Assembly: GCA_026002855.1 (NCBI GenBank)
Contig: BPGD01000001.1
Location: forward strand, 1,577,972-1,641,971
DNA: 64,000 nt
Direction: 5' to 3'
DNA from: Bryobacteraceae bacterium
GTDB lineage: Bacteria; Acidobacteriota; Terriglobia; Bryobacterales; Bryobacteraceae
This document shows positions 7,259-58,697 of this stretch, in pieces; position 1 is the first letter of the stretch, and every line of letters begins with the position of its first letter. The translations under genes were made by a program, and so were the position numbers. The notes under the pieces were generated by a model. The model saw nothing but the letters and a program-made list of their open reading frames with translations. It did not search any database and was not told where the DNA came from.

Positions 7259-8410
7259 ATGTGGCCGAGGCTGCGTGAAATCGTGAGGAAGGAGTTCCGG
7301 CAGGCGTTCCGCGAGCCGCGGATGCGCGTGTTTCTCTTCCTGCCGCCGCTGTTGCAGACGATTCTTTTCGGCTATGCCGTAAACCTGGATGTCGAGCACG
7401 TGCGGCTCGGCTGGATGGACATGGACGGCGGCCCGGCGGCGCGCGAGCTGTTTTACGCCTTCGAGTCCAGCCATGAATTCGAGGTGGTGGCGCACGCGCA
7501 CAACGAGCGCGAGGCGCAGGCGCTGCTTGACCGCGGCGATGTGCAGGCGCTGGTGCGGGTGGCGCCGCGCTTCAGCCGGGAGGTGGCCGCGCACCGGCAG
7601 GGCCAGGTGCAGCTTCTGCTGGATGGAACCAATTCCAACACCGCCGCCATCATCCTGAGCCACGCCACCGGCGTGGTGGCCGGCTTCAACCGGCGGATGC
7701 TTCTCGATCAACAGAAGGAGCGGCTGGTGGACCGCACGCGCGGCGGAGCGGTGCTCGTGCGGATTCCGGGCGTCGAGACGGAACGGCGCGTGTGGTTCAA
7801 CCCGGAGCTGAAGAGCCGGAATTATTTCGTGCCGGGCGTCATTGTGAATGTGCTGACGCTGGTGACGCTGATGCTCACCGCGCTGAGCATCGTCCGGGAA
7901 AAGGAGATCGGGACGATGGAACAGCTCATGGTGACGCCGCTGCGGCCGATGGAACTGATGCTGGGCAAGACGATACCGTTCGCGCTGGTGGGGATGTTCG
8001 ACCTGATGCTGTTGACGGGCCTGGCGCTGCTGATCTTTCACGTTCCGTTGCGGGGCAGTGTGCTGCTGCTGGCGGGCGCGGGGGCGCTGTTCATCCTTTC
8101 CACGCTCGGGGCCGGTCTTTTCATGAGCACGGTGAGCCACACGCAGCAGCAGGCGATGATGGCGTCCTTCTTTTTCTTTCAGCCCGCTTTCATGTTAAGC
8201 GGCTTTGCGTTTCCGATCCGCAACATGCCGGAGCCGGTGCAGTGGCTCACGTATCTGAACCCGCTGCGGTATTTCATGGAAATCGTGCGCGGGGTGTTTC
8301 TGAAGGGTAGCGGCGCCGGCCAGCTCTGGCCGCAACTGGCGGCGCTGGCGGCGATGGGGGTCACAATTGTCGTCCTCAGCGCGCTGCGGTTCCACAAGCG
8401 GCTCGAATAG
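7259..8410 (+). CDS. ABC-2 type permease (YbhR-like)
   Basis: 383-residue second permease subunit, homologous in layout to the one before it: N-terminal membrane helix (FLFLPPLLQTILFGYAVNLD), extracytoplasmic domain, then five helices preceded by EKEIGTMEQLMVTPLRP. TGAGGAGGGG just before the ATG is a strong ribosome site. It is the last gene of the operon and ends 37 bases before the convergent manA stop, with no clear hairpin between. With its partner it should form the heterodimeric membrane channel. In E. coli the homologous pair has been linked to drug and cation export; that function is only inferred here. Confidence 0.88.
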   Translation: MWPRLREIVRKEFRQAFREPRMRVFLFLPPLLQTILFGYAVNLDVEHVRLGWMDMDGGPAARELFYAFESSHEFEVVAHAHNEREAQALLDRGDVQALVRVAPRFSREVAAHRQGQVQLLLDGTNSNTAAIILSHATGVVAGFNRRMLLDQQKERLVDRTRGGAVLVRIPGVETERRVWFNPELKSRNYFVPGVIVNVLTLVTLMLTALSIVREKEIGTMEQLMVTPLRPMELMLGKTIPFALVGMFDLMLLTGLALLIFHVPLRGSVLLLAGAGALFILSTLGAGLFMSTVSHTQQQAMMASFFFFQPAFMLSGFAFPIRNMPEPVQWLTYLNPLRYFMEIVRGVFLKGSGAGQLWPQLAALAAMGVTIVVLSALRFHKRLE

Positions 8411-53771: not shown

Positions 53772-56174
53772 TCAGGCGGCGGCACCCCGGTCCTCCAGCC
53801 AGATCCGGTGCGCCGCGGCCAGCGCCGCAAAACGCTCCGGGTGGCAGGTGAGAATCAACCACTGCACCCGCCCCTGAAGCTCCTCCATGCGGCGCAGGAT
53901 CCGCCCGAGCCTTTCGTCATCGGTGGCCAGCAGCGCGTCATCCAGCACCACCGGGAACGGCTCCATTTCCGTCAACATCTCCGCCAGCGCCAGCCGCACC
54001 GCCAGGTGCAATTGCTCGAGTTCCCCGCCGGAGATGCGCTCGGGCGCCACGTCGATCGCCGCCGTGGCAGGCCGGACTTGCGCCGGTGTCCATGTGTCCG
54101 GCGCGAGCGAGAGCCGTTCGGCGAAGCCGCCAGTGATCTGGCTCAGGATGGCCGCCGCGCGATCCTCCACCCGGGGCAGCACCCGCTGCTGGATCTCCGC
54201 CTGAACGGTCTCCAGCGTGTGCTTGAGGAGTTTCGAGGCATCGGCCTCCAGGCGCGCCCTGGCGAGCTCGCGCTCTTTTTGCTCGAGCAGTGCGCTCTTC
54301 CCGGCAATGGCCGTGTAGATCGCCTGGCCCTGGAGGCCGGCCAGATCGTAGCGGGCCTGTTCGAGCGCGGCACTGGCCTCCCGCAGGCGCCGGGCAGTCG
54401 CCTCCGCGGCCTGCCGTGCGCCTTCCAGCCGCGTCTCCAGCTCCGGCGGGAAGGCGGCGAGCCCGGCTTCAGCCTGCACCAGGGCCTGCCTGAGACCGTG
54501 GATCTCCAGTGACAGGCCATCCAGGGCTTTCTGGATCTCGGCATCCGTCCGCGTTTCTGCCGCCAACTGCCGCGCTCCTTCCTCCAGCCGTGCGAGTTCC
54601 CGGCGGCGCTCCTCGATCTGGCGGCCCACGTCCTCGCATCGGCGGCGCGCCGCCTCGCGAGCCACCGCCTCGGCGCTCCTGCCCTGTTCGTGGGTGCGCA
54701 GGGCCATGCGCCAGCCGTCCAGCCGCACCAGCAGGTCATTGGCCTGTTGGCGGCGCTGTCGCAACTCCTCCAGGCTGTCAGCGCTAAGCGGTTCTACGAT
54801 TCTCGCCCAGTCCGCCTCCAGTTGTTCCAGCTGGGTCCGCAACTGGGCGGCGGACTCGGCCGGCCCGGTCAGCCGCAGCCGGCCGAAGCCCGGGATGCGC
54901 AGCTCAATGCGCGGCGAGCCGCTGATCCGGGCCGTCTCATGGCTGCGCAGCACGACGACGCCCCGTGGCTCGCCCTCGAGCACCTCCACCTGGCCGCCGT
55001 CTTCGGGGACGATCTCGGCATGCAGCAGGGCGCTTTCCAGTCGCGCCGCCAGTTCGCGGCGGCGGCGATCCAGCGCCTCCAGACGATCGAGGGTTTCGGC
55101 CGAGGGCGCCTTGAGTTCGTAGAGTTCTTTCTCCGCGCCGGCGATCCTGAGGTGGAGATCGGTCTGAAGCCTGTGGTAGACCGCTTCCGCCTCCTCCAGC
55201 GCCTGGGCCGCTTTCCGGCTTTCCTCCTCCAGGGCCGCGAGGCGCTCCTGCGCCTCGGCGCGCTGTCGGCTCAGTGTCGTTCGTGCCTGAAGGATCTGCG
55301 TCAGACGGCCGAACTCGGCTCCCGCCTTATCGCGTTCAAGTGTCAGTCTCTCGACCTCTGCGGCCGCCTCGCGGCGTTTCTGGACTTCGACTTGCAGGCG
55401 CTTTGCTTCCTCTTCGAGGCGCGCCTGCTCGGACTCGAGTGCCGCGGATTCCTGCTCGAGGGCGCGGATGCGGTCCCGCAGCGCGTCCAGTTCGGCCAGC
55501 CGGGCGCGGAGTTGCGCCAACTCTTTGCTTAGCTCCTCAACCTCCTTCGACAGCACGGAGACCGGGGAGGCCTGCTTTGGCTGCCCGGTCGGTGTCCAGT
55601 CCCGCTCGTAAATCCTCCGGATATCCGCCTCGATGCGCTCGAGCGCCTGGCTGCGCGTCTGCGCCCCCAACGCTGCCCTCACTGCGTCCTGAACGCTGCC
55701 ATCCACCTCGGTGGCCGCAAGCCGGTTTTGCGGCACCCAGAGAACGCCCGCCAGCAGCCAGTGCCGCGTCCTGGGATCCACGCCGGACCTCTCCCGGCCG
55801 CCCAGAAACGCCGGCAGTCTTTGCTCCACCGCGTCGCCTTCGGCCACCAGAGCGAAGCCGTCCGCCCGTTCTTCCTCAAGCGTCGCGGCAGAGGCCTGTA
55901 GGAAGACCTTGGTCAGCCGGTAGCGCCGTCCGCCGCTTTCAAACTCCACGGTGACCCTGGGGGCCAGCTCCCGCCCCCAAGGCTGCCAGTTGCGAATATC
56001 CTCCCGGGTGGAGCGATACGGAATCACGAACGCCGCCGACAGCGCCGCCAGCAGGGTTGACTTTCCGCTCCCGTTCGGCCCGCTGATCAGGTTCGGGCGC
56101 TCCGCAGCGAAGCGGAACCGTGCCGGTTGGACAAACCGGCCGAATTTCTCCAACTCGACCGAGTGAACGATCAC
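53772..56174 (-). CDS. SMC/SbcC-like ATPase without zinc hook
   Basis: 800-residue AAA ATPase of the SbcC/YhaN type. Residues 1-95 form the N-terminal half of the ATPase (Walker A GPNGSGKST, about 32-40). Coiled-coil arms follow (about 205-380 and 440-690). The C-terminal half has the signature ISGGELEQ (about 714-721), Walker B PVVLDD (about 741-746; Asp instead of Glu), D-loop ATDDER, and TCHPE as H-loop. Between the coils, where Rad50/SbcC has a CxxC zinc hook, there is a beta-rich segment (about 382-440) with no CxxC. The GTG start at 56174 overlaps the SbcD stop (GTGA). It should act as a pair with the nuclease. Confidence 0.88.
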   Translation of the reverse strand: MIVHSVELEKFGRFVQPARFRFAAERPNLISGPNGSGKSTLLAALSAAFVIPYRSTREDIRNWQPWGRELAPRVTVEFESGGRRYRLTKVFLQASAATLEEERADGFALVAEGDAVEQRLPAFLGGRERSGVDPRTRHWLLAGVLWVPQNRLAATEVDGSVQDAVRAALGAQTRSQALERIEADIRRIYERDWTPTGQPKQASPVSVLSKEVEELSKELAQLRARLAELDALRDRIRALEQESAALESEQARLEEEAKRLQVEVQKRREAAAEVERLTLERDKAGAEFGRLTQILQARTTLSRQRAEAQERLAALEEESRKAAQALEEAEAVYHRLQTDLHLRIAGAEKELYELKAPSAETLDRLEALDRRRRELAARLESALLHAEIVPEDGGQVEVLEGEPRGVVVLRSHETARISGSPRIELRIPGFGRLRLTGPAESAAQLRTQLEQLEADWARIVEPLSADSLEELRQRRQQANDLLVRLDGWRMALRTHEQGRSAEAVAREAARRRCEDVGRQIEERRRELARLEEGARQLAAETRTDAEIQKALDGLSLEIHGLRQALVQAEAGLAAFPPELETRLEGARQAAEATARRLREASAALEQARYDLAGLQGQAIYTAIAGKSALLEQKERELARARLEADASKLLKHTLETVQAEIQQRVLPRVEDRAAAILSQITGGFAERLSLAPDTWTPAQVRPATAAIDVAPERISGGELEQLHLAVRLALAEMLTEMEPFPVVLDDALLATDDERLGRILRRMEELQGRVQWLILTCHPERFAALAAAHRIWLEDRGAAA

Positions 56175-57265
56175 GCCCCCGCTCCTCTTGCCAGCCGCAT
56201 CAGCATCCGCACGGCCAGCCGCGCGGCGCCAGCCTCCGGCTCTTCCTGCGCCTTCCGATTCAGCCGCTCGAGCGCTTCCCGCACGATGGGGTCCCGGATC
56301 TCGTCGACAACCAGCACCGGAACCAGCCCGCTGTCGTCCACGCGCAACAGCAGGAATTCCGTCTCCAGCCGCCGGATTGCCTCCAGCGTCTCCGCGTCTT
56401 CGGGCAGCAGCGTCCCGTCAAGGCGCAAATCGAGCAGCACATCCGGCCCCCGAAGGGCTTCGAGCTCTTTCAGGACCTCCGCCAACTGCCCCGGATGCGC
56501 GATTTCGCATTCGCGCTTCCTCCAGAGGAGCCGGCCCGTCTCCACGCTGCGCAGCCGGGGCAGGCCGCGTGGCCCGTCGATTTCCACGAACAACACCCGG
56601 CCGCTCGCATCCTCGCCGAAACGGGTAGGCTCGGGCGTGCCGCTGTAGGCCATGCGATGGCCCCGCTCCGCGTCCCCGTAGATGCGCTGCGAGTGCCAGT
56701 CGCCGAGGGCGAGATAGTCCAGCCGCCGCGCCCATGCGGCGTCGGCCGATATCGGATGCGCACGTTCGGCGCCGGGCACGGACTCAAGCGTTCCGTGCGC
56801 CACGCCCACGCGGATTCGATCCTCGTGCGTTCCGGCCGGGATCCACGCCGTCGGGTCGCTGCCGCCCCATCGCGCCGTCAGCGGGCAGGGGAACAGCACC
56901 GCTTCGCCCGCCTCGACCGGCTCGGAGCGGACGAGGATCCGAACATTTGGAAGCGTCCGCCACACCGGCCTCTCCCACACCGAGCCGGGCTCGAACGGAT
57001 CATGATTGCCCGGCAGCACGAACACCGGACAGGGAAACTGGCCCAGTACCCGCGCCGTCCGGTCGATCTCGTCCAACGACACCGCATTGCTTTCGAAGGT
57101 GTCGCCGGCAAGGATGGCAAAGTCCACGCGCTCGGCTCGGGCCAGCTCCGCCAGCCGCCCGGCCGTTTCCAGGCGCGCCTCCCGCACCCGTCCGGCGGCC
57201 GCGCCGGCGTGCGCCGCGTTCATTCCGATCTGCCAATCCGCCGTGTGCAGGAACCGCACTGCCAT
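56171..57265 (-). CDS. SbcD/Mre11-like metallophosphoesterase (YhaO-like)
   Basis: 364-residue DNA nuclease subunit. Metal motifs: FLHTADWQIG (Asp10; Gln stands where Mre11 has His), LAGDTFESN (Asp55), LPGNHDPFEP (Asn87, His88), GVAHGTLES, and GDWHS (His for the last ligand). Residues after about 260 are a partner-binding extension without recognised motifs. GGAAGGAG precedes the ATG by a normal distance. It is coupled to the SMC-like gene and, in the same direction, follows the WYL gene after 176 bases. The His-to-Gln change also occurs in some YhaO-type proteins, so activity need not be lost; this is inference. Confidence 0.88.
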   Translation of the reverse strand: MAVRFLHTADWQIGMNAAHAGAAAGRVREARLETAGRLAELARAERVDFAILAGDTFESNAVSLDEIDRTARVLGQFPCPVFVLPGNHDPFEPGSVWERPVWRTLPNVRILVRSEPVEAGEAVLFPCPLTARWGGSDPTAWIPAGTHEDRIRVGVAHGTLESVPGAERAHPISADAAWARRLDYLALGDWHSQRIYGDAERGHRMAYSGTPEPTRFGEDASGRVLFVEIDGPRGLPRLRSVETGRLLWRKRECEIAHPGQLAEVLKELEALRGPDVLLDLRLDGTLLPEDAETLEAIRRLETEFLLLRVDDSGLVPVLVVDEIRDPIVREALERLNRKAQEEPEAGAARLAVRMLMRLARGAGA

Positions 57266-57441
57266 GTTCTGGACTCCTTCCGCGCGAGAAAACCGCGGCG
57301 GGGCGGCGGCACGCCCTGGGACAGGGAGCCACCCCCGGCGCAGGCCGCCGGCCCCGGCCGCCGTCTCCTCCGATGTCCTCCCCCGTTGTTTCCATCATGC
57401 GGGAGGAGGTGGCTCACCCGGAGAGCCTGGGCCGGGAAAAA

Positions 57442-58482
57442 TCATCCTGTTGACATCTGCTGGGCGCTCGCCGCCGGCTTGCGCTGCTCGGCATGCTGGG
57501 CCGCCAGCCCTCCCTCCAGACACTCGATGACCTGCTCCCGGAGCGAGTCCGGCGCTTCCACCACCACGTCCGGCATGAAGCGCAGAATGTCCTGCACCAG
57601 TTCGCGGGAATCCGAATACGGCACCTCCAGCCGCACCTCGTTGCCGGCCAGCGGGGTCAGCCGCTGCTTCGGATGCCATTCTTCCCGCTCGATCCACCGC
57701 GACGCGGGCAGCCGGAACCGCAATACCGCCACCTTGTCCGGCTCGCCGGCGAAGATCCCGTAGCCCGCTCCCAGCCGGCGGTCCAGCAGATCCTGCGGAT
57801 ATTCCTCCGCCTTCTCCCTGAGCAGCGTCGCGCCGCGGATTGCGTCCAGGGCAAAGCTGCGGAAATCCTCGCGCAGATGGCACCAGGCGTCCAGATACCA
57901 GTTGGCGTTGTACCAGATGAGCCGCTGCGGACTCACGACCCGCTCCAGGATTTCACCCCGCGAGCGGCTGAAATAGAGCAGCCCGAGTTTTTTCTGCTGG
58001 AGCACCGCTGTGCTCACGATGCGAAAAATCTGGTCGTTCACAGGCCGGTGACGCGCCACCATCAGCCGGAAACGCCTCCGGATGTCCTTCTGCTTCACCT
58101 TGCCTGCATTCAGCAGGGACTCGATCTTTTTCAGCGCCGGCCCGAGCGCGTCGGCCAGCAGCCGCGAATCGAGCTGCTCGACAAAATCGCGCAGCAACAG
58201 CAGCGCGGTCATCTCTCCTGACGTGAGCCAGACGCCCGGCAACTGGTAGCGCTGCGGCGCGCCGCCGTCCGCCCTCTCCGGCGAACCATCCTCCACATAG
58301 CGGTAGCCGCGCAATTCCGGGTCATATTCAATGGGCGCCAGAAGCCGGTCCCGCATGAATTGCAGGTCCCGCTTTGCCGTCGCACGGCTGATTTCCAGTT
58401 CATCCATGATGCGGCTGAGCGGAACCGCCCGGTTTGTTTCCAGAAGCCGGTGGATCACATAAATCCGTTCCATCTGACTCAT
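57442..58482 (-). CDS. WYL-domain transcriptional regulator
   Basis: 346-residue helix-turn-helix regulator. The HTH_11 domain is at residues 1-60 (ERIYVIHRLLETNRAVPLSR; ISRATAKRDLQFMRD). The WYL domain spans about 150-220 and includes WYNANWYLDAWCHLREDFRS (about 198-217), followed by a WCX-type C-terminal region (about 240-320). WYL proteins sense nucleic acid or nucleotide signals and are often found beside DNA-damage and phage-defence genes. It is upstream of the SbcD-like gene on the same strand and is the likely regulator of the pair. GGGG before the ATG is the ribosome site; a weak TTTCTT-N17-TAAAAT lies near 58520-58548. Confidence 0.88.
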   Translation of the reverse strand: MSQMERIYVIHRLLETNRAVPLSRIMDELEISRATAKRDLQFMRDRLLAPIEYDPELRGYRYVEDGSPERADGGAPQRYQLPGVWLTSGEMTALLLLRDFVEQLDSRLLADALGPALKKIESLLNAGKVKQKDIRRRFRLMVARHRPVNDQIFRIVSTAVLQQKKLGLLYFSRSRGEILERVVSPQRLIWYNANWYLDAWCHLREDFRSFALDAIRGATLLREKAEEYPQDLLDRRLGAGYGIFAGEPDKVAVLRFRLPASRWIEREEWHPKQRLTPLAGNEVRLEVPYSDSRELVQDILRFMPDVVVEAPDSLREQVIECLEGGLAAQHAEQRKPAASAQQMSTG

Positions 58483-58601: not shown

Positions 58602-58697
58602 TGGCGGAAGCTCGTGGGAGTCGAACCCACCAGCGGCGCGCAGGCGCCGCCCGCTGGTTTTGAAGACCAGGCCAGGCACCGGCCCAGTGGAGCTTCC
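58602..58697 (-). tRNA. selC: tRNA-Sec (TCA), selenocysteine tRNA
   Basis: 96-nt tRNA with CCA encoded. The acceptor stem is 8 bp (GGAAGCTC with GAGCTTCC), longer than the usual 7, as in bacterial tRNA-Sec. The anticodon loop CTTCAAA gives TCA, which reads UGA. There is a long G/C-rich variable arm (GGCGGCGCCTGCGCGCCGC) and a T arm GGTTCGACTCC. The combination of TCA anticodon, 8-bp acceptor and long variable arm is specific. No selA, selB or selD and no in-frame UGA selenoprotein is visible in the window, so the rest of the pathway must lie elsewhere. Confidence 0.94.

What the first reader, a model, noticed from the sequence alone, without database searches (positions are those of the whole stretch)
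53772..58482. WYL regulator + SbcD-like nuclease + zinc-hook-less SMC-like ATPase: candidate DNA-repair or defence module
Three same-strand genes form a compact unit: WYL regulator, then an SbcD-like phosphoesterase coupled by GTGA to an 800-residue SMC-like ATPase. The ATPase lacks the CxxC hook of SbcC/Rad50; in its place is a beta-rich segment (about residues 382-440) without cysteine pairs. The nuclease has Gln in place of the usual His in its first metal motif. WYL proteins often accompany phage-defence and DNA-damage genes. The closest known relatives I can name are Bacillus YhaN/YhaO, which have no WYL partner that I know of. No integrase or transposase is nearby, so it may be a resident repair system rather than an island.
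Basis: partly seen in the sequence, partly recalled or inferred. Interest (0 to 1): 0.68.

Follow-up and report, generated by a model that had tools for sequence, protein, structure and literature searches.

The report
WYL-controlled stand-in for SbcCD nuclease
The three genes are a regulator plus an unusual two-part DNA-end-cutting machine that appears to replace the ordinary SbcCD repair nuclease, and the regulator's likely switch sequence also lies in front of CRISPR and other anti-virus genes in the same bacteria, which hints that DNA repair and immunity are switched on together.

Summary
In detail: WYL regulator, SbcD-like phosphoesterase and hook-less SMC-like ATPase lie at the stated coordinates. 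The nuclease/ATPase pair is a divergent Mre11-Rad50-type complex; Gln in metal motif I and a beta domain instead of the zinc hook are subfamily traits. In the host's family its broad type and canonical SbcD nearly exclude each other: 40 and 34 of 237 genomes, overlap 1. In one genus they occupy the same locus. So it is most likely an SbcCD substitute rather than a dedicated defence system. WYL is not a fixed partner (beside the nuclease in 12 of 40 genomes). But 17 of 19 loci of this WYL gene carry, at its stop codon, a palindrome GGCTC-N7-GAGCC with a -10-like hexamer exactly 11 nt on, like DriD promoters. The composite also precedes a nuclease gene not linked to WYL, HmaCBA-like and type I-G CRISPR-Cas operons in this genome, and csx1/csm6 or hmaC in sister species. 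I infer a WYL-controlled repair-plus-immunity regulon. Binding, direction of control and ligand are untested.

The parts
57442..58482 (-). WYL transcription factor (HTH_11 + WYL + WCX), 346 aa
   Evidence: Pfam; orthologues in 16 of 150 order genomes at E<=1e-25, one match in each
57411..57427 (-). palindrome GGCTC-N7-GAGCC, proposed WYL operator at the -35 region
   Evidence: present at or just after the WYL stop codon in 17 of 19 orthologue loci; with the -10 it is upstream of sbcD in 12 of 53 further loci scanned (ten beside WYL, G135, and G640 at a contig edge) and in none of the other 40, L284 beside WYL set apart
57394..57399 (-). -10-like hexamer CATGAT, 11 nt after the palindrome (NANNNT invariant)
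   Evidence: 17 of 17 palindrome-bearing WYL loci; 0-3 of 18 when the hexamer is shifted by -6 to +7 nt
57266..57393 (-). 128-nt stretch between the -10-like hexamer and sbcD, similar length in the genus, no Rfam match
56171..57265 (-). SbcD/Mre11-like metallophosphoesterase with Gln at motif I (364 aa)
   Evidence: Pfam, NCBIfam below cut-off, PDB match to SbcD
57230..57232 (-). codon of Gln12 (His in SbcD motif I)
   Evidence: alignments
53772..56174 (-). SMC/Rad50-like ATPase without zinc hook (800 aa)
54867..55025 (-). apex beta domain, residues 384-436, in place of the zinc hook
   Evidence: AlphaFold models; no Foldseek PDB match at E<=0.001
53937..53942 (-). Walker B Asp-Asp (D745 D746), invariant in 19 of 19 aligned proteins
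   Evidence: alignment
58602..58697 (-). tRNA-SeC gene, conserved neighbour of the module in three genera

Best explanation
The SbcD-like and SMC-like proteins form a divergent, hook-less Mre11-Rad50/SbcCD-type DNA-end-processing complex that does the job of canonical SbcCD in this lineage. It would use a beta-domain apex instead of a zinc hook and a Gln-containing metal site. Its transcription starts at a promoter with no evident -35 box and a weak -10 box, where the WYL protein binds a 17-bp palindrome over the -35 region and most likely activates, as DriD and PafB do. The same box lies before HmaCBA-like, CRISPR-Cas I-G, Csx1/Csm6, an SNF2 helicase and two orphan families, so the WYL protein would co-regulate DNA-end repair and immunity. 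Shown by computation: gene content, near-exclusion with SbcD, same-locus replacement in one genus, motif geometry and distribution. Inferred: nuclease activity, WYL binding, activation and the signal.
For: Near-exclusion with canonical SbcD: 40 and 34 of 237 family genomes, overlap 1 (a 10.7-Mb genome with 10% contamination), 5.7 expected, p 0.010; among good genomes 27 and 25 of 148, overlap 0, p 0.0039 (not corrected for kinship; the 40 include sister clades with His in motif I). Same neighbourhood beside the MBL gene and the 92/121/389-aa genes in genus g9. No other SbcD-type gene found in the closed window genome by TIGR00619 at E<=0.01. Repair neighbours: UvrD helicase, helicase/RNase-H-like protein, PolX; a WYL orthologue heads a canonical SbcD-SbcC operon with AddB- and AddA-like genes. 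Promoter geometry in 17 of 19 WYL loci with shift control. Element upstream of sbcD in 12 of 13 genomes with the WYL orthologue, once not linked to it, versus 0 of 10 without, p 1e-5; 0 of 40 other loci. Composite motif: 26 matches in five genomes versus 1 for the reversed control, before hmaC, cas3g and csx1/csm6. DriD sites overlap -35 at one distance from weak -10 boxes (preprint PMC12340889, passages).
Against: The paired WYL arginines that align with PafC/PafBC FR-[FL]D-R are Ala/Ser and Ala/Ser/Met in 16 of 16 orthologues, so ssDNA sensing as in SiwR may not apply. WYL adjoins the nuclease in only 12 of 40 genomes. Restricted to the 16 core-clade genomes of the order sample, the exclusion is weaker (0 overlap with 23 canonical of 150, p 0.06), and no test is corrected for kinship. 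Many family genomes have neither system. Two of five scanned downstream neighbours in the close clade are unrelated enzymes on the other strand (G055, G135). Distant relatives sit beside SIR2-like and OLD-like genes and on plasmids. G618 has WYL overlapping SbcD without the element, and G014 has the WYL gene and a canonical SbcD without it. The motif search covers one genus, and the two G000 Hma copies are near-duplicates. A repressor would fit the operator position too.
Confidence: 0.62

Rival explanations
1. Dedicated anti-phage module: the pair degrades or senses foreign DNA ends and WYL switches it on during infection, as BrxR or CapW switch defence operons.
For: The WYL box is shared with HmaCBA-like, CRISPR-Cas I-G and Csx1/Csm6 genes. 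130 plasmid records carry a relative at E<=1e-5, 4 of them over at least 80% of the query. Distant relatives neighbour SIR2-like and OLD-like genes.
Against: It fills the SbcCD slot and near-excludes SbcD. It is in 5 of 5 genomes of the genus. In the close clade 3 of 5 scanned downstream neighbours are repair-type enzymes. The nuclease matches no PADLOC family at E<=0.1.
Confidence: 0.2
2. Ordinary accessory SbcCD variant; the WYL gene is a chance neighbour fixed by the tRNA-SeC locus.
For: WYL is absent beside most homologues. tRNA-SeC to sbcD without WYL exists in G062. In genus g11, G059 and G104 have tRNA-SeC directly before the UvrD-like gene, without the module.
Against: The element upstream of sbcD tracks the WYL orthologue (12 of 13 versus 0 of 10; 0 of 40 other loci) and occurs in G135, where WYL is on another contig. 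An orthologous WYL gene heads a canonical SbcCD operon.
Confidence: 0.12
3. The palindrome belongs to another regulator or to an RNA hairpin, not to the WYL protein.
For: The spacer can fold (z -1.7) and the palindrome makes a stem in RNA; palindromes have many possible readers; other WYL-domain genes in these genomes were not surveyed.
Against: It occurs at the WYL stop codon whatever gene follows; it has fixed spacing to a -10-like hexamer; the consensus fold gains nothing from covariation (+0.22 kcal/mol). None of the downstream proteins read looked like RecA or LexA (by eye; ten were scanned).
Confidence: 0.12

Closest known systems
SbcCD / Mre11-Rad50
   Same: MPE nuclease gene overlapping an SMC-like ATPase gene; same chromosomal slot in one genus and near-exclusive distribution
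   Different: no zinc hook, beta apex, DxQ motif I, Asp-Asp Walker B, below TIGR00619 cut-off, separate clade
DriD, PafBC, SiwR (WYL activators of DNA-damage responses)
   Same: wHTH-WYL-WCX; palindrome over -35 at fixed distance from a weak -10 (DriD, preprint PMC12340889, passages) and a palindrome between regulator and target operon (SiwR, PMC10693628, passages)
   Different: arginine pair absent in 16 of 16 orthologues; predicted targets include CRISPR-Cas and Hma genes
BrxR / CapW (WYL repressors of defence systems)
   Same: WYL regulators of immune operons; BrxR binds inverted repeats (PMC9122601, passages)
   Different: predicted sites are spread over the genome, the linked target is an SbcCD-like pair, and the site lies over -35
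YhaO/YhaN
   Same: MPE-ATPase pairs; hook-less ATPase with Asp-Asp Walker B (recalled)
   Different: HAADLHLDSP-type clade is separate in the tree
Lamassu (LmuB)
   Same: Rad50-like ATPase, profile match E 6.4e-21; Lamassu chains among the structural matches
   Different: canonical SbcC of L205 matches LmuB better (1.1e-25); neither P0002 nor P0003 matches LmuA or LmuC

Membership tests
SbcCD / Mre11-Rad50 (canonical) | metallophosphoesterase with the metal motifs (list of motifs recalled) | tested here: met
   D10, D55, N87, H88, H157, H191 invariant in 21 rows; Gln at 12 in 18 of 21, His in 3; Asp or His at 189
SbcCD / Mre11-Rad50 (canonical) | zinc hook CxxC at the coiled-coil apex | tested here: not met
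   no CxxC in P0001 or any SMC relative listed; beta domain instead
SbcCD / Mre11-Rad50 (canonical) | score above the TIGR00619 (sbcd) cut-off | tested here: not met
   41.5 bits and 33.7 bits in the genome search against 77.65
SbcCD / Mre11-Rad50 (canonical) | ATP-dependent DNA-end nuclease activity | not testable with these tools
   needs biochemistry
DriD/PafBC/SiwR-type WYL activators | HTH-WYL-WCX architecture | tested here: met
DriD/PafBC/SiwR-type WYL activators | site overlapping -35 at a fixed distance from a weak -10 | tested here: met
   for the sequence geometry (no binding data), compared with passages
DriD/PafBC/SiwR-type WYL activators | paired arginines of the ssDNA site | tested here: not met
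   16 of 16 orthologues lack both; equating SiwR R204/R207 with this pair rests on the 3-residue spacing
DriD/PafBC/SiwR-type WYL activators | ssDNA-triggered activation | not testable with these tools
   no binding or expression data
Lamassu | operon with LmuA effector (and usually LmuC) | tested here: inconclusive
   only the three genes were scanned: P0002 matches no PADLOC family, P0003 only WYL, Cas3c and DRT-WYL models
YhaO/YhaN | HAADLHLDSP-type nuclease clade | tested here: inconclusive
   P0002 falls outside the clade of L053, L055, L056, but that this clade is YhaO rests on a recalled motif

The most novel reading that the evidence does not exclude
A single WYL transcription factor controls a regulon that unites a substitute SbcCD DNA-end nuclease with several unlinked immune systems (HmaCBA-like, type I-G CRISPR-Cas, Csx1/Csm6) and orphan gene families, through a new operator-promoter GGCTC-N7-GAGCC-N11-NANNNT. 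It would sense something other than ssDNA through a WYL pocket that lacks the usual arginines.
Probability: 0.5. Interest if true: 0.75.

Novelty: new variant of a known kind. Interest (0 to 1): 0.62.

Why it matters
The WYL regulators I met in the passages read act either on DNA-damage genes (DriD, PafBC, SiwR) or on linked defence operons (BrxR, CapW). A conserved WYL operator before both an SbcCD substitute and unlinked immune operons would make one regulator a link between repair and immunity, testable with one deletion and RNA-seq. The nuclease pair suggests that SbcCD can be displaced in place by a hook-less cousin, which bears on whether the zinc hook is essential for end processing.

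Tried and rejected
Conserved structured RNA in the WYL-sbcD spacer: no Rfam match other than the tRNA gene and sub-threshold chance hits in the window stretch and seven palindrome loci, weak fold z-score, no gain from covariation; the conservation is better explained as a promoter.

MBL-fold protein as an alternative partner: dropped, because the same gene lies near canonical SbcCD at the same locus (in G034 two further genes stand between).

tRNA-SeC as an integrase attachment site: no close repeat of the tRNA 3' end at the far side. Locus variation in genus g11 is real (G069 with module; G059 and G104 without; G026 with WYL but no SbcD), but the mechanism is unknown.

Lamassu membership: the LmuB match is generic, since canonical SbcC scores better. 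Apex fold: no convincing PDB match (best Foldseek E 0.063; best VIA Z 6.7 with rmsd 6.9 over 84 residues, below the noise level stated there). In the whole-model Foldseek search the 50 rows shown are nearly all SMC, MukB, Rad50, Wadjet or Lamassu chains. Phage-borne copies: two weak phage records and 30 IMG/VR loci, 2 of them matching at E below 1e-20; not pursued. The five plasmid regions read list no WYL gene beside the relative; that gene table is incomplete. No print search found this module or regulon; searches were made, over open-access papers only, judged by listings and the passages named.

Rows dropped: the 13-versus-10 operator table leaves out G544 and G554 (no element) and G640 (2 mismatches plus -10, contig ends 66 nt upstream), because their WYL status is unknown, and further family and phylum loci. 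A fuller scan of 53 loci (L099 unreadable) has the element in 12: ten beside WYL, G135 and G640; L284 beside WYL lacks it; 0 of the other 40. G127 and G138 carry SMC fragments only. L054, L111 and L157 were left out of the tree.
Full report
What is there. Three genes lie on the minus strand: WYL regulator 57442-58482, SbcD-like phosphoesterase 56171-57265 and SMC-like ATPase 53772-56174, the last two overlapping by GTGA. A tRNA-SeC gene lies just upstream of WYL (58602-58697). The closed 4.44-Mb genome holds one copy of the ATPase. Its only SbcD-type gene by TIGR00619 at E<=0.01 is this one, at 33.7 bits against a cut-off of 77.65.

The two oddities are family traits. In an alignment of 21 relatives D10, D55, N87, H88, H157 and H191 are invariant. 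Position 12 is Gln in 18 of 21 and position 189 is Asp or His. No SMC relative listed has CxxC. AlphaFold places a small beta domain at the coiled-coil apex (strands 384-436; separate model pLDDT 91.6), alignable across the family. It has no significant PDB match, which does not show that the fold is new. Walker B is Asp-Asp in 19 of 19 aligned proteins. A tree separates these nucleases from 21 canonical SbcD of the same order and from a HAADLHLDSP-type clade.

Function of the pair. Over the whole family (237 genomes) 40 have a nuclease of this broad type (profile A1, E<=1e-60; sister clades with His in motif I included) and 34 have canonical SbcD. One genome has both; it is 10.7 Mb with 10% contamination. 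Expected overlap is 5.7 (p 0.010). Among 148 good genomes it is 27, 25 and 0 (p 0.0039). For the 16 core-clade genomes of the order sample alone, overlap with 23 canonical of 150 is 0, p 0.06. Kinship is not corrected for in any of these. Of the 12 genomes of genus g9 in the order sample, 7 have canonical SbcD, 4 the pair and 1 an ATPase fragment; none has both. In the five canonical genomes and the pair genomes L039-L041 that I read, the two systems lie among the same flanking genes, in opposite orientation; in G034 two further genes stand between SbcC and the MBL gene. This is replacement in place and argues that the pair does SbcCD's work. Downstream neighbours in the close clade: a UvrD helicase with an exonuclease insert (scanned in G059 at the module-free locus; its homologue overlaps the ATPase stop by ATGA in G069), a helicase with an RNase-H-like domain in G032, PolX in G052; the other two scanned (G055, G135) are unrelated enzymes on the opposite strand. 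Results against: distant relatives stand beside SIR2-like or OLD-like genes, 130 plasmid records carry a relative, and many family genomes have neither system.

WYL is not a fixed partner. It adjoins the nuclease in 12 of the 40 family genomes (window genus 5, G069, G055, G032, G617, G618, G646, G095) and in 0 of 20 phylum-wide regions fetched; several of the other 28 lie on short contigs. Its orthologues (16 of 150 order genomes at E<=1e-25) also head a canonical SbcD-SbcC operon with PDDEXK (AddB-like) and UvrD (AddA-like) genes in G077 and a HEAT-repeat gene in three genomes. The MBL gene beside the pair in 7 genomes is no partner: it also lies beside canonical SbcCD.

The promoter element. 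At or just after the stop codon of the WYL gene, 17 of 19 loci carry GGCTC-N7-GAGCC (up to two mismatches) followed after exactly 11 nt by NANNNT. The exceptions are L284, where WYL and SbcD overlap, and L203 at a contig end. Shifting the hexamer by -6 to +7 nt gives 0-3 of 18 (the 18 include a spurious match in L203). The palindrome covers the -35 region and no -35 hexamer is evident. This is the geometry reported for DriD promoters (passages of preprint PMC12340889) and resembles the palindrome next to siwR (passages of PMC10693628). Upstream of sbcD the element occurs in 12 of 13 genomes that hold the WYL orthologue and in 0 of 10 that lack it (p 1e-5). In G135 the WYL gene is on another contig and the element is still exact. 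A scan of 53 loci finds it in 12: ten beside WYL, G135, and G640 at a contig edge; 0 of the 40 other loci have it. Against: G618 has WYL beside SbcD without the element, and G014 has the WYL gene and a canonical SbcD without it.

A regulon. The composite motif matches 26 times in the five genomes of the genus (21 places). The reversed pattern, also a palindrome, matches once; base composition predicts about one per genome. First genes downstream, read: sbcD in 4 places (G048 has one mismatch and is not counted), HmaC/DUF499 in 3 (PADLOC E 4e-95 for G000, with HmaB and helicase matches behind it; 4.5e-94 for G048), cas3g-cas8g-cas7g in 1, with an array of at least 27 repeats in the same stretch, Csx1/Csm6-type CARF-HEPN in 1, an SNF2 helicase in 1, an ADP-ribosylglycohydrolase/inositol-phosphatase protein in 1, a 93-97-aa orphan in 3, a 161-170-aa orphan in 4, and 3 places with unidentified or no good reading frames. 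The two G000 Hma loci are near-duplicates and count as one.

Mechanism proposed. WYL dimers sit on the palindrome, take the place of -35 recognition and raise transcription of the end-processing pair and of immune operons. Activation rather than repression is inferred from the weak -10 and the missing -35. The inducing signal is open: the two arginines that align with the PafC/PafBC pair are Ala/Ser and Ala/Ser/Met in 16 of 16 orthologues, and a double-arginine mutant of SiwR loses ssDNA binding. That this is the same pair is inferred from spacing.

Verdict. The pair works like SbcCD but is not a member of the canonical family by two tested features (hook, family cut-off). The WYL protein resembles DriD in promoter geometry but not in the arginine pair. 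Novelty lies in the replacement, the apex domain and above all the proposed repair-plus-immunity regulon, which rests on sequence alone.

Noticed in passing
window 58602-58697: tRNA-SeC adjoins the module in 5 of 5 genus genomes and in G069 and G062; in genus g11 G059 and G104 lack the module at this spot and G026 has other genes plus WYL there.
   Followed up: partly
L296 and L297 (G000:C1, about 205 and 451 kb): Two near-identical HmaCBA-like operons in one genome, each with the WYL-type promoter element and each near a resolvase-like gene (label by eye).
   Followed up: partly
L324 (G000:C1:3096000-3115900): Type I-G CRISPR-Cas genes with at least 27 copies of a 36-nt repeat; several neighbouring repeat-spacer units are identical; promoter element before cas3g.
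   Followed up: partly
L326 site at 8261 and L331:9147-9428; L327:6391-6903: Two orphan families (93-97 aa and 161-170 aa, the latter apparently exported) follow the promoter element in 3 and 4 of 5 genomes; the two proteins scanned have no Pfam or PADLOC match.
   Followed up: no
L250:4371-6896: UvrD-type helicase with an exonuclease (RNase_T) domain inside its C-terminal helicase part, directly after tRNA-SeC in G059; a homologue overlaps the ATPase stop in G069.
   Followed up: no
L031, L211, L095-L098: A sister clade with DWHLG nucleases has a long gene of about 980-1085 aa directly upstream of SbcD; the one scanned (L031) is an SNF2-type helicase.
   Followed up: no
L207: G095 has the WYL gene and an SbcD-like gene (DWRIG) without an ATPase gene behind it.
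   Followed up: no
L330:7257-9194: ADP-ribosylglycohydrolase fused to an inositol-phosphatase-like domain behind the WYL-type promoter element in G048.
   Followed up: no
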